Of a DNA stretch of 64,000 bases, positions 20,641 through 24,648 are shown piece after piece (position 1 is the stretch's first letter; each line of letters begins with the position of its first letter). A model generated the notes under the pieces. It searched no databases. It had not been told where the DNA came from and saw nothing but the letters and a program-made list of their open reading frames with translations. Location: positions 62,001-126,000 of the forward strand of contig JARLJQ010000025.1 in the NCBI GenBank assembly GCA_031291115.1, in the 5' to 3' direction. The position numbers and the translations under genes were made by a program. This stretch comes from Legionella sp. GTDB taxonomy: Bacteria; Pseudomonadota; Gammaproteobacteria; Legionellales; Legionellaceae.

Positions 20641-23600
20641 CTACAACAACTCTGGAATCGCCTCCTGCTCCACAACCCCTGCAGTAACCTCTTGAGACAC
20701 CTTTTGGTAACTCACTCCCAGAAGAGTTGATTGAGCAGGAATCCCAGCCCATTGCGTGTTCTCTGGCAAGCGCTCACCCTTCATTAATAAAGAAAGGCTT
20801 CCTAAATCCGCATTATCTTCCATCAAGGTATTATAAAGTACAATAGAACCCGTTCCTATATTGCAGCCGGAGCCAATAGTTACATTAGAGACTTTAAAAA
20901 TTCGGTCTTCATACAGATGGGTTTGTAATATTGTTTCTGCATTGATGCATACGTCATCACCAATAGTAATCAAATCAAATTCTGAAAATTCAGCACTGTC
21001 GGTAAATACGCGTTTTCCAGCCTTAGTTCCTAAACAGCGGTGAACCCAAAGCGCAAAAGGTGTACCCAAAACTTTATTAGTAAAATGCGGATTGATGTAG
21101 TAATTATATGAATACTCAATCACATCATTTTTCCAGATAAAGGAATCCCAAATTGGTTTGGTTAGTGGTTTTAACTTTCCAAGCAACACCCATTTTAATC
21201 CAACCAGTACACCAACAAGACATACAGTAAAAAACAACTCGGATATTGGTAAAATAAGAGCTGTCGCCCCCCAGGAATAATGAGCTAACATGTAATCCAA
21301 AACATATAACATGTTAAACAATACAATCAGCGAAAATGCAGTCGGTAAAATAATCCTGACAAACTCGATTGCCAAACGCGTACAATATAATTTTTTAGAA
21401 GGGTAAAACGTATCTTTATCCGAAAAACCAACAAATAACTCACGTTTTGGTAAATAGACCGCTGGAGATCCCAACCAGGCCGAATTAGTCTCCGTAGCCC
21501 GATTTCCTGAAGGAGTTACTGACAAACAACCTAATAAAGCACCTTCGCCAATTTCCTTGCCACCCGTTAATAAACTTACATTACCAACAAAGCCTCGACG
21601 GCCAATACGGACTGGCGCAAAAGTAATCACGCCATTACAGACACTAGGCCATGCTAAAGCAACAGAACTCGCGGTAAAGCCACCTTCTTCAATAGTAACC
21701 AAATCAGGAATAATATGCGGTGCTTCACCCATTTCAACGCCTTTGCCAAGCTTTGCACCCAGAAGACGTAGAAAGGCGGGCAGATATAAAGTATCCGCCA
21801 TAATTGAGATTTCATCGCCATCAAGCATTTTTACAATGACCCAATGACGCAGGTAATAAAAACTTTTTAGTGGGTATTGGCCTGGTTTTATTTTATCCAT
21901 GATTATTTTCTTGCATACAATGATGCACAGATAATATAAGGACAAAAAGAGAATTGAGCCTAAAGGAATCGCGAACAGCATGGTAGCAAAATAGCGACTT
22001 TGGTCGTAAAAATAACTGACCAGAGAAATCCCCGGAATAAGGCAGAGGTAAAACATGACCATCACAAAAACAACACCCAGATAATGCAAAATACCAAACA
22101 AAGTATTTTCAAGCATTGTAGACTCTTCTACTTCAACTTTTTTCCGAGCTATGTGATCTGCAGGCAAAGCACAGGGCACTGCTGGCGAGCCGACAAAATA
22201 CGTTGCTTGAGGCATAACGCTGTCATTGGGCAACATGGACATATCATCCAATACAGCATTATCCTCAATCTGCGTATTCAAACCAACGACCGCACGGGCA
22301 CCAATATAGCAATTAGATCCAACATCTATAGTGCCAATCTTTAACCAGCCGTCTTCAACCACGTATCCATAAAGTCGGCTATCAATACCGATAGAAGTAT
22401 TATCACCAATATTCAGCAAATCATGGGTTGCAATCTGCATGGAACCTAAATAACAGTTTTTACCTATTTTTGCGCCTAACAGTCGGTAATAGATATTTGC
22501 TAAAGGCGAACCCACTAAAAATTTTGCCAAAAATAAATTTTTCTGCAGCTTTTGTACGAGCCACCAACGGTAATAAAACCAGCCCCAAAGCGGGTATTCA
22601 CCCGGCTTTATTCGCCCTAAGAGCAACCATTTCATGCCAATGGTTATAAACAGAGAAATAATAGGCAAAGATAAAAACAAGGCTAAAAATGCCAGTTGGG
22701 TTTCTCTGGAAATAATGGAATATTCAGCAGTAATCCAGCTGTAACATAAAACAACCGCCAATAATTGCAAAGTACCTACAGCGTATTGGAATAAACAACC
22801 AAAAAACTGACCAAGGCCGCATAAATAATACTTCCATTGTGGCGCTCTGTATTTTTTCTTGTTGGCCAGTGCTTCCTCAGCCAATGCATTAACTTTAATT
22901 TTTTTGAATTTCTGCTCCAGCTCCCCAATGGTTGGGTTTTTATATAAATCTAAAATAGAAATATTTTTTAATACCGGAATTTTTCTTAAATTGGAAACTA
23001 CTTTCGCCGCCAGCAAAGAATGGCCACCTAAATCATAAAAGAAATCTGCATCTACAGAAATATTGGGATAATCCAACGCCTGTTCCCAAACGGTCGCAAT
23101 TTCTTTGGCTAAAGCTGATTTTGGCGCATGATGCACTTTATCCGACTTAATCAATGTGGGTGCGGGTAATTCTTTTCGATTGACCTTACCACTTGCCAAA
23201 ATTGGGAAGCTCTCTACCAGTTCAATATGACCTGGAATCATATAATCTGGTAAATTGGTTTTTAAAAAGAGTTTAAATTCATGCAAATCATAAGCACTAT
23301 TCTTATCAAGTAATAAATAAGCGATTAAGGTAGGCCTATCTAGGGTTTGCAAAGAAACAACCGCTTGTTTAATGCCCGGATACTGCATCATCACGGCTTC
23401 AATTTCATTCAATTCAATACGAAAACCGCGTAATTTAATCTGATCATCCACACGTCCAGCAAAACGTAAGTCACCCTGTTCGGTTTTGGAAACCAAGTCA
23501 CCCGTCCGATACAAGCGCTGATTGTTATTCGCAGGATTAAAAATAAATTTTTCAGCCGTATTTTCAGGTTGATTCACATAGCCACGAGCTAAAGCACGCC

Positions 23601-24648
23601 CGCCGATGCACAACTCACCTTCTTCGCCATCTGCTACTTCTTGTAAATGCTCATTCAGAATAAACACTTCATAACCTGCAACTGGTTTACCAATAGTTAT
23701 TTCTTTGTCAGGATGGCAATCAGCATAGGTAGCAATTACAGTTGCTTCAGTAGGGCCGTAGGTATTGATAATACGCAAACCTTCTCTGCTCCAACATCTG
23801 ACTAGACTGGATGGGCAGGTCTCGCCACCTAAAACTAATAAACGCAAATCAGGTAATTGCCCTTCTAAAGTGGATAATAAAGTAGGTACCGTTGAAAAGA
23901 AGCTTACTTGATGTTGTTGTAAAAAAGAAACCAAACCAAGACCAGAGCGTATTTCCTTTGCAGTACAGGCAACCAAAGCTGCACCATTAGCAAAAGCCAT
24001 CCATAACTCTTCCAGAGAAGCATCAAAAGCCAAAGAAAAACCTTGGTACACCCGATCGTCACTACTCATTTCATAAAGCGTGCTGGCTTCTTTTACATAA
24101 TGACAAATACTGCTTTGAGTAATTTCAACACCTTTAGGTTTTCCAGTGGATCCTGAGGTGTAAATCACATAACACAAATTATCAATACCTTGCTCATTAG
24201 GAGCCAAGTCCAATCGTTTTGTCGGTTGTTGGGATAGTTGCTCACTGAGTGTATCGAGCGCAAAAACCATTGGCCATGCCAATTTTTTTTGTTCTAATTG
24301 CGCAGATGAAGTGAGTACTGCATTAAAAGACAAGTCAGAAAAAATATAATTAATTCGTTCATCAGGATAATCTGGCTCAATAGGCACATAGGCTGCACCA
24401 GCTTTTAAAGTCGCTAAAATTGCGATATAACACTCAACGGAACGCTCTAAAAGAATACCCACTATGCTGCCTTGGGTTATCCTATTTGCAGAAAGATAAT
24501 GAGCCAATTGATTGGCGCGACATTCTAATTCTTGATATGAAATAAAGGCATTATCGCAAATTAAGGCGATGTTGCTAGAATAATTAGTAACTGACCGCTC
24601 AAAAAAATGATGCAACTGTATCGTGTTATCATCGGAAGAAAAACTCAA
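20641..24648 (-). CDS. Pls/PosA-type single-module peptide synthetase (epsilon-polylysine synthetase architecture)
   Basis: A 1335-residue membrane enzyme. An adenylation domain (about 10-500) has YTSGSTGKPKG (163-173), FDASLEELW (208-216), NTYGPTEAT (295-303), YRTGDLV (380-386), GRVDDQIKLRGFRIE (398-412) and the catalytic Lys488 (SGKVNR). A carrier domain follows with GGHSL and the phosphopantetheine Ser544. Then come three pairs of membrane helices (about 608-678, 850-912, 1092-1156), each followed by a soluble hexapeptide-repeat domain (about 720-830, 955-1070, 1195-1310). This is the layout of Streptomyces Pls (about 1319 residues), which polymerises lysine. There is no condensation or thioesterase domain. 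The hand-read specificity residues are lysine-like (D A E S V G T V I K). Substrate and product are inference. It is transcribed alone. Confidence 0.9.
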   Translation of the reverse strand: MSFSSDDNTIQLHHFFERSVTNYSSNIALICDNAFISYQELECRANQLAHYLSANRITQGSIVGILLERSVECYIAILATLKAGAAYVPIEPDYPDERINYIFSDLSFNAVLTSSAQLEQKKLAWPMVFALDTLSEQLSQQPTKRLDLAPNEQGIDNLCYVIYTSGSTGKPKGVEITQSSICHYVKEASTLYEMSSDDRVYQGFSLAFDASLEELWMAFANGAALVACTAKEIRSGLGLVSFLQQHQVSFFSTVPTLLSTLEGQLPDLRLLVLGGETCPSSLVRCWSREGLRIINTYGPTEATVIATYADCHPDKEITIGKPVAGYEVFILNEHLQEVADGEEGELCIGGRALARGYVNQPENTAEKFIFNPANNNQRLYRTGDLVSKTEQGDLRFAGRVDDQIKLRGFRIELNEIEAVMMQYPGIKQAVVSLQTLDRPTLIAYLLLDKNSAYDLHEFKLFLKTNLPDYMIPGHIELVESFPILASGKVNRKELPAPTLIKSDKVHHAPKSALAKEIATVWEQALDYPNISVDADFFYDLGGHSLLAAKVVSNLRKIPVLKNISILDLYKNPTIGELEQKFKKIKVNALAEEALANKKKYRAPQWKYYLCGLGQFFGCLFQYAVGTLQLLAVVLCYSWITAEYSIISRETQLAFLALFLSLPIISLFITIGMKWLLLGRIKPGEYPLWGWFYYRWWLVQKLQKNLFLAKFLVGSPLANIYYRLLGAKIGKNCYLGSMQIATHDLLNIGDNTSIGIDSRLYGYVVEDGWLKIGTIDVGSNCYIGARAVVGLNTQIEDNAVLDDMSMLPNDSVMPQATYFVGSPAVPCALPADHIARKKVEVEESTMLENTLFGILHYLGVVFVMVMFYLCLIPGISLVSYFYDQSRYFATMLFAIPLGSILFLSLYYLCIIVCKKIIMDKIKPGQYPLKSFYYLRHWVIVKMLDGDEISIMADTLYLPAFLRLLGAKLGKGVEMGEAPHIIPDLVTIEEGGFTASSVALAWPSVCNGVITFAPVRIGRRGFVGNVSLLTGGKEIGEGALLGCLSVTPSGNRATETNSAWLGSPAVYLPKRELFVGFSDKDTFYPSKKLYCTRLAIEFVRIILPTAFSLIVLFNMLYVLDYMLAHYSWGATALILPISELFFTVCLVGVLVGLKWVLLGKLKPLTKPIWDSFIWKNDVIEYSYNYYINPHFTNKVLGTPFALWVHRCLGTKAGKRVFTDSAEFSEFDLITIGDDVCINAETILQTHLYEDRIFKVSNVTIGSGCNIGTGSIVLYNTLMEDNADLGSLSLLMKGERLPENTQWAGIPAQSTLLGVSYQKVSQEVTAGVVEQEAIPELL

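What the first reader, a model, noticed from the sequence alone, without database searches (positions are those of the whole stretch)
20641..24648. A Pls/PosA-type poly(amino acid) synthetase in Legionella with a lysine-like code
The order adenylation domain, carrier domain, then three membrane-helix pairs alternating with three hexapeptide-repeat domains is that of epsilon-poly-L-lysine synthetase (Pls), and the length fits (1335 against about 1319). Hand alignment to GrsA gives the specificity residues D209 A210 E213 S252 V272 G274 T296 V304 I305 K488. This matches the lysine code DAESIGSVCK (from memory) at seven of ten positions with two conservative changes. It predicts an iso-peptide oligomer or polymer of a basic amino acid made by an intracellular pathogen. 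Such a cationic product could act on competitors, on the envelope or in the host vacuole.
Basis: partly seen in the sequence, partly recalled or inferred. Interest (0 to 1): 0.85.

Follow-up and report, generated by a model that had tools for sequence, protein, structure and literature searches.

The report
Predicted polylysine-making enzyme in Legionella
This gene belongs to a known family of enzymes that string basic amino acids into short positively charged chains, and its substrate pocket reads as lysine, as in its relatives in many Legionella species; the enzyme kind is known, but this lineage looks separate from the Streptomyces polylysine makers and its product is untested.

Summary
[quoted passage not shown] It passes the curated Pls/PosA model TIGR02353 (553.4 bits, cut-off 423.1).

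Three of 41 rows have the exact Pls code, and Ala at the substrate-sorting position is in 41 of 41.

The gene is common in the genus (over cut-off in 32 of 45 genomes), mostly at one chromosomal place, and under purifying selection. The lineage is separate from actinobacterial Pls (one clade rejected, p-AU 0.0125 and 0.0064), so the lysine reading rests on the pocket, not on close kinship.

Verdict: new member of a known kind. Lysine is the most likely substrate; product and role are unproven. Both structure models had low confidence and decide nothing.

The parts
20641..24648 (-). Pls/PosA-family synthetase, 1335 aa, TTG start
   Evidence: TIGR02353 553.4 bits over cut-off 423.1
23161..24615 (-). 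Adenylation domain (about residues 12-496), code DAESVGTVIK, lysine-like
   Evidence: Pfam and NCBIfam; alignments
22912..23103 (-). Carrier domain, residues 516-579, motif LGGHSL at 540
   Evidence: PP-binding 34.4 bits; motif
22123..22821 (-). Repeat 1 (residues 610-842): membrane-helix pair plus hexapeptide-like domain
   Evidence: Hexapep hit 776-800
21394..22116 (-). Repeat 2 (residues 845-1085)
20719..21393 (-). Repeat 3 (residues 1086-1310), holds family-wide R1204, E1223, H1244, D1248, E1292
   Evidence: catalytic role is inferred
24658..24662 (-). AGGAG, ribosome-site-like, upstream of the TTG start
   Evidence: AGGAG before a TTG start read by eye in 10 of 18 named loci printed

Best explanation
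It is a stand-alone, membrane-bound, single-module synthetase of the Pls/PosA family. Its adenylation domain most likely activates L-lysine with ATP and loads it on the phosphopantetheine arm of the carrier domain. The three-repeat C-terminal domain then joins lysines through the side-chain amine, over and over, giving a short isopeptide-linked epsilon-(oligo/poly)-L-lysine. Shown here: family, architecture, intact motifs, conserved pocket and conservation of the gene. Inferred: lysine as substrate, isopeptide linkage, chain length, export. The biological role is not established; action of a cationic chain on nearby microbes is the likeliest guess, by analogy only.
For: TIGR02353 over its curated cut-off. 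Three homologous membrane/hexapeptide repeats. Adenylation and carrier motifs intact. Code 8 of 10 as in Streptomyces pls with two V/I swaps; exact Pls code in 3 of 41 rows. Ala at the position that sorts substrates by length (PMC10522769) in 41 of 41 rows. All ten polar or charged C-terminal residues conserved in at least 95% of 50 rows are kept. Phosphopantetheinyl-transferase hit in the own genome. Purifying selection.
Against: The lineage is not the actinobacterial Pls lineage. Over 34 pocket positions the mean identity to Pls (66.3%) is below that to the uncharacterised DLED group (70.4%). One of 41 rows (L084) has Tyr in place of the Asp that binds the alpha-amine. No dedicated partner, exporter or immunity gene was recognised. 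Broken orthologues exist (G021, L072). Structure models too weak to test the pocket.
Confidence: 0.7

Rival explanations
1. Same enzyme kind, other substrate: ornithine, beta-lysine, arginine or another basic amino acid is polymerised, and the lysine-like code misleads.
For: Separate lineage; wider pocket nearest to the DLED group of unknown substrate; PMC10522769 shows that odd codes can go with unexpected preferences.
Against: Ala gate in 41 of 41 rows and the Met gate plus Ser contact of the ornithine enzyme lacking; code identity to Pls 88.3% on average against 47.4-60.8% for the other groups.
Confidence: 0.2
2. The C-terminal domain does not polymerise but moves lysyl groups to an acceptor, such as an envelope lipid or glycan, since its units resemble hexapeptide acyltransferases.
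For: Weak sequence likeness to hexapeptide acyltransferases (best 3ixc, E 6.5e-08).
Against: Pls and PosA, with the same architecture, make polymers (PMC10522769), and the residues conserved across the family are kept here.
Confidence: 0.07
3. A decaying gene without present function.
For: Orthologues broken in G021 and L072; no over-cut-off match in 13 of 45 genomes, G021 included.
Against: Intact frame here; low dN against large dS; family-wide residues kept; conserved place.
Confidence: 0.03

Closest known systems
Epsilon-poly-L-lysine synthetase Pls (Streptomyces; adenylation domain solved as 7WEW)
   Same: Domain order, length (1319 against 1335), code 8 of 10 plus two V/I swaps, family-wide C-terminal residues
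   Different: 37.8% identity in the adenylation part and 27.8% in the C-terminal part to the annotated Streptomyces pls; separate clade; a metallopeptidase gene follows that pls, none recognised here
Delta-poly-L-ornithine synthetase PosA (Acinetobacter baumannii)
   Same: Architecture; stand-alone gene without obvious cotranscribed neighbours (PMC10522769); 38.1% and 30.3% identity in the two parts to the A. baumannii protein
   Different: Met gate and Ser at the ninth position there, Ala and Ile here
DFE-code members, some beside diaminobutyrate-forming genes (Streptomyces sp. NBC_01527, Skermanella)
   Same: Neighbouring clade in the adenylation-domain tree (SH-aLRT 96); 39.9-43.5% identity there for the four rows measured
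   Different: Phe at the size gate; diaminobutyrate transaminase gene beside two of them, none here; not the neighbouring clade in the C-terminal tree

Membership tests
Pls/PosA (cationic homo-poly(amino acid) synthetases) | C-terminal domain over the curated cut-off of TIGR02353 | tested here: met
   553.4 bits against 423.1
Pls/PosA (cationic homo-poly(amino acid) synthetases) | Adenylation domain, carrier domain, then three pairs of membrane helices alternating with three soluble units | tested here: met
Pls/PosA (cationic homo-poly(amino acid) synthetases) | Asp for the alpha-amine and Glu for the side-chain amine in the pocket | tested here: met
   D209 and E213; roles from PMC10522769
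Pls/PosA (cationic homo-poly(amino acid) synthetases) | Makes an isopeptide-linked chain of a diamino acid | not testable with these tools
   bench step referred
Epsilon-poly-L-lysine synthetase | Lysine-type code as in Pls (DAESIGTVVK), Ala gate | tested here: met
   8 of 10 plus two V/I swaps; Ala gate
Epsilon-poly-L-lysine synthetase | Common descent with actinobacterial Pls inside the family | tested here: not met
   One clade of all 34 AES-code rows rejected, p-AU 0.0125 and 0.0064; long branches are a caveat
Epsilon-poly-L-lysine synthetase | Adenylates L-lysine | not testable with these tools
   bench step referred
Delta-poly-L-ornithine synthetase PosA | Code DMEHNGTVSK with Met gate and Ser at the ninth position | tested here: not met
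   Ala gate and Ile/Val at the ninth position in 41 of 41 rows

The most novel reading that the evidence does not exclude
Legionella and its kin carry a second, evolutionarily separate line of lysine-polymerising synthetases, kept at one chromosomal place in many Legionella species, so that polylysine making would extend to Gram-negative intracellular bacteria. Published work reports that bacterial epsilon-polylysine crosses mammalian cell membranes (PMC9606270, start of abstract and passages), so a role where the bacterium meets its host is conceivable but wholly untested.
Probability: 0.45. Interest if true: 0.65.

Novelty: new member of a known kind. Interest (0 to 1): 0.5.

Why it matters
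If lysine is the substrate, a product class known mainly from actinomycetes would be a common trait of Legionella, a genus for which a 2016 survey said that no NRPS product was known for any strain (PMC5126622, passage). The same lysine code would then occur in two lineages of one enzyme family, and the family-wide residues in the third repeat give a concrete place to look for the unknown polymerisation chemistry.

Tried and rejected
Structure prediction of the C-terminal domain (18 rows, mean pLDDT 53.7) and of the adenylation domain (12 rows, mean pLDDT 57.0, pTM 0.38) gave low-confidence models; I blame the shallow alignments of close relatives, the only relatives I could hand in. No fold claim rests on them. 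A PDB fold search with the first gave no match at E 0.001 or better; no fold search was made with the second. A scan of viral contigs found no relative.

Operon partners were sought. By tblastn at E 1e-10 the MFS/HEAT protein and the cyclic-nucleotide-binding protein upstream in the window matched 0 of 38 related loci and are taken as local insertions; the ATP-grasp gene matched 1 of 38, at 28%. These loci cover only some kilobases around the gene, and one genome is among them twice (L068, L110). Frames that look like ABC transporters lie upstream in two close relatives outside the genus (L074, L077), judged by eye, too few to build on.

Rows dropped or treated apart: Scatt (script chose a wrong frame); L127 (stop inside the gene; left out of trees, its code read from one piece); p_L180, p_L181 and p_L184 (wrong frame chosen; they stood in the 65-row tree but are not counted); p_L185 (contig ends early, not counted for C-terminal residues); StrepNBC224 (left out of the 50-row conservation count, shown beside it). 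Six Legionella or related rows were left out of the 65-row tree to thin it. Of 26 non-own genomes with a match in the phylum sample I fetched 20. Of the 6 class-sample genomes with a match outside the family I fetched 5. Of 69 plasmid records matched, 50 were listed and 20 opened; of these 20, the proteins of 17 entered the 51-row trees (Scatt, Streptomyces mirabilis L095 and Pseudonocardia L134 did not).

Four paper searches pairing Legionella with polylysine terms listed no title or abstract start that reports such a product in Legionella; this covers only the open library, and one search listed 20 of 56 papers. Supplementary files could not be read. Supplementary Table 2 of PMC10522769 may list Legionella rows; its main text does not name the genus.

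A draft of this report said that none of the codes sampled outside the family was of the DAES type. The check showed one that is (L127); the text is mended.

Full report
WHAT IS THERE. The gene at 20641-24648 on the minus strand is one open frame of 1335 residues starting at TTG. An AGGAG stretch precedes the TTG; by eye, AGGAG followed by a TTG start occurs in 10 of the 18 named loci printed, and several of these also have an in-frame ATG at the codon where the window has ATA, codon 10. Pfam finds AMP-binding, AMP-binding_C, PP-binding and hexapeptide repeats. NCBIfam's TIGR02353, 'Pls/PosA family non-ribosomal peptide synthetase', matches residues 619-1305 with 553.4 bits against a cut-off of 423.1. 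A hydropathy scan shows three pairs of membrane-like segments, and comparing the three repeat units as profiles of 50 rows gives E-values of 5.6e-39, 2.4e-41 and 9.8e-27, so the units are homologous. By sequence the C-terminal profile resembles hexapeptide transferases and carbonic-anhydrase-like proteins weakly (best 3ixc, E 6.5e-08), and no Pls-type C-terminal domain is named among the 25 solved hits.

THE SUBSTRATE CODE. I aligned the window protein with 40 loci from the same family and with references from annotated plasmid records. Controls behaved: the A. baumannii protein gave DMEHNGTVSK, the code published for PosA (PMC10522769); two proteins beside a diaminobutyrate transaminase gene gave DFECLSAVTK and DFECLSVVTK (neighbours); an annotated Streptomyces pls gave DAESIGTVVK. 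That pls aligns over 508 residues (983 bits) with 7WEW, the solved epsilon-poly-lysine synthetase adenylation domain, with the same residues at the pocket motifs. The window has DAESVGTVIK: eight of ten identical and two V/I swaps. Over 41 rows the codes are DAESIGTVIK 18, DAESIGTIIK 16, DAESIGTVVK 3, DAESIGTIVK 2, DAESVGTVIK 1 (the window) and YAESIGTVVK 1. Two more loci of the family give DAESIGTVVK and DAESIGTVIK. PMC10522769 (parts 1-4 of 8 and passages read) says that the second position helps sort substrates by length: Ala in lysine enzymes, Met in the ornithine enzyme, Phe in the diaminopropionate enzyme. Ala is invariant in the 41 rows. The Tyr in L084 replaces an Asp whose loss abolished activity in PosA, so that row may be inactive.

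OUTSIDE THE FAMILY. Of 22 codes read from class and phylum samples outside the family (5 of 6 class genomes with a match; 17 readable of 20 fetched phylum loci), 7 are DMEH, 7 DLED, 5 DFE, one DVEA, one DSEC and one DAES. The DAES one, L127, has the exact Pls code in a gene with a stop inside; its adenylation piece is 48.2% identical to the window and 38.5% to Streptomyces Pls, so it looks like the Legionella type, and this lineage is not confined to one family.

A SEPARATE LINEAGE. Quick maximum-likelihood trees of 51 rows (L127 not included) place the Legionella-family rows as one group (SH-aLRT 99 in both) apart from the four actinobacterial rows with the Pls code, in the adenylation and in the C-terminal part. 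In the adenylation tree its neighbour is the DFE-code clade (SH-aLRT 96); in the C-terminal tree the DFE rows are split and this does not repeat. Holding all 34 AES-code rows together is rejected, p-AU 0.0125 and 0.0064. The tool warns that long branches may weigh on this and that the group should be named before the tree is seen; I had seen the trees. Outside the pocket these rows are on average 35.6% identical to Pls, 38.8% to ornithine-type, 38.9% to DLED and 41.1% to DFE rows; at the ten code positions 88.3, 56.7, 60.8 and 47.4%; over 34 pocket positions 66.3, 57.5, 70.4 and 57.2% (the 34 positions follow GrsA numbering from memory). So the ten-residue code points clearly to lysine, and the wider pocket less so: there the uncharacterised DLED group is nearest. 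Whether the lysine code arose twice, or is ancestral and was lost elsewhere, cannot be told from an unrooted tree.

DISTRIBUTION AND CONSERVATION. A match over the cut-off occurs in 32 of 45 genomes of the genus and in 45 of 143 of the order sample, those 32 included. At E 1e-60 or better it occurs in 9 of 369 genomes of the class sample and 27 of 398 of the phylum sample, own genome included in both. Named carriers include L. steelei, L. tucsonensis, L. bononiensis, L. wadsworthii, L. quateirensis, L. rowbothamii, L. bozemanae, L. steigerwaltii, L. saoudiensis, L. parisiensis, L. anisa and Fluoribacter gormanii; that search finds close relatives only, so a species missing from the list may still have the gene. 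Of the 19 named loci, 14 have both the dienelactone hydrolase gene upstream and panC-panB downstream; one has the hydrolase only and one the pan genes only; three have neither. Pairwise dN to six relatives is 0.12-0.22 with dS large or beyond estimation: the ratio is only roughly known, but purifying selection is plain. Gene G+C is 0.397, the window's 0.407. Two orthologues look broken: G021 has a stop and a frame break, and L072 lies in two frames.

HOW IT LIKELY WORKS. [quoted passage not shown] The own genome, 82% complete, gives one phosphopantetheinyl-transferase hit, in line with the single such enzyme reported for Legionella (PMC5126622; passages and sections 13 and 17 read). By analogy with Pls and PosA, lysine is adenylated, loaded on the carrier and joined through its side-chain amine by the membrane domain. 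Polar or charged C-terminal residues conserved in at least 95% of 50 rows are Q614, R694, R961, N1023, T1196, R1204, E1223, H1244, D1248 and E1292, besides hydrophobic residues, Trp and many Gly and Pro. Five of the charged ones lie in the third repeat, and H1244 is present in 61 of 65 rows of the larger set; the other four are three wrong frames and one truncated gene. That these residues form the catalytic centre is my inference. Neighbouring genes give no hint of export or control: where the gene sits elsewhere, its neighbours differ.

COMPARISON WITH WHAT IS KNOWN. By the sequence tests made it is a member of the Pls/PosA family, and NCBI's own model already names such proteins. By its code it should work like Pls, but it does not belong to the actinobacterial Pls line. 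It is not a PosA by code. No report of such a product in Legionella was seen in the listings of four searches of the open library.

VERDICT. Interest 0.5.

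Noticed in passing
window 25044-28241 (-): An MFS transporter fused to HEAT repeats and a small cyclic-nucleotide-binding protein lie between the hydrolase gene and the synthetase gene; neither was found near the gene in 38 related loci, so they look like a local insertion.
   Followed up: partly
window 15593-16666 (-): A 357-aa ATP-grasp protein with RimK-like domain, nearest among curated models to part of cyanophycin synthetase but far under its cut-off (192 against 850 bits); one of 38 related loci has a 28% match.
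   Followed up: partly
window 20917-20919 (H1244) and related loci: A histidine in the third C-terminal repeat is invariant in all 61 readable family rows; only the third repeat concentrates charged family-wide residues, a possible catalytic centre.
   Followed up: partly
L127 (class sample, other family): A synthetase gene with a stop inside carries the exact Pls code and is nearest to the Legionella type, so this lineage reaches beyond one family.
   Followed up: partly
L087, L092, L135: Three plasmid-borne Pls/PosA genes of alphaproteobacteria have a phosphopantetheinyl transferase gene just downstream, unlike the Legionella gene.
   Followed up: no
own genome G000:C21 (L138, L139): Two condensation-domain hits in open frames of 3652 and 1101 residues: the genome also has classical non-ribosomal or hybrid synthetase genes.
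   Followed up: no
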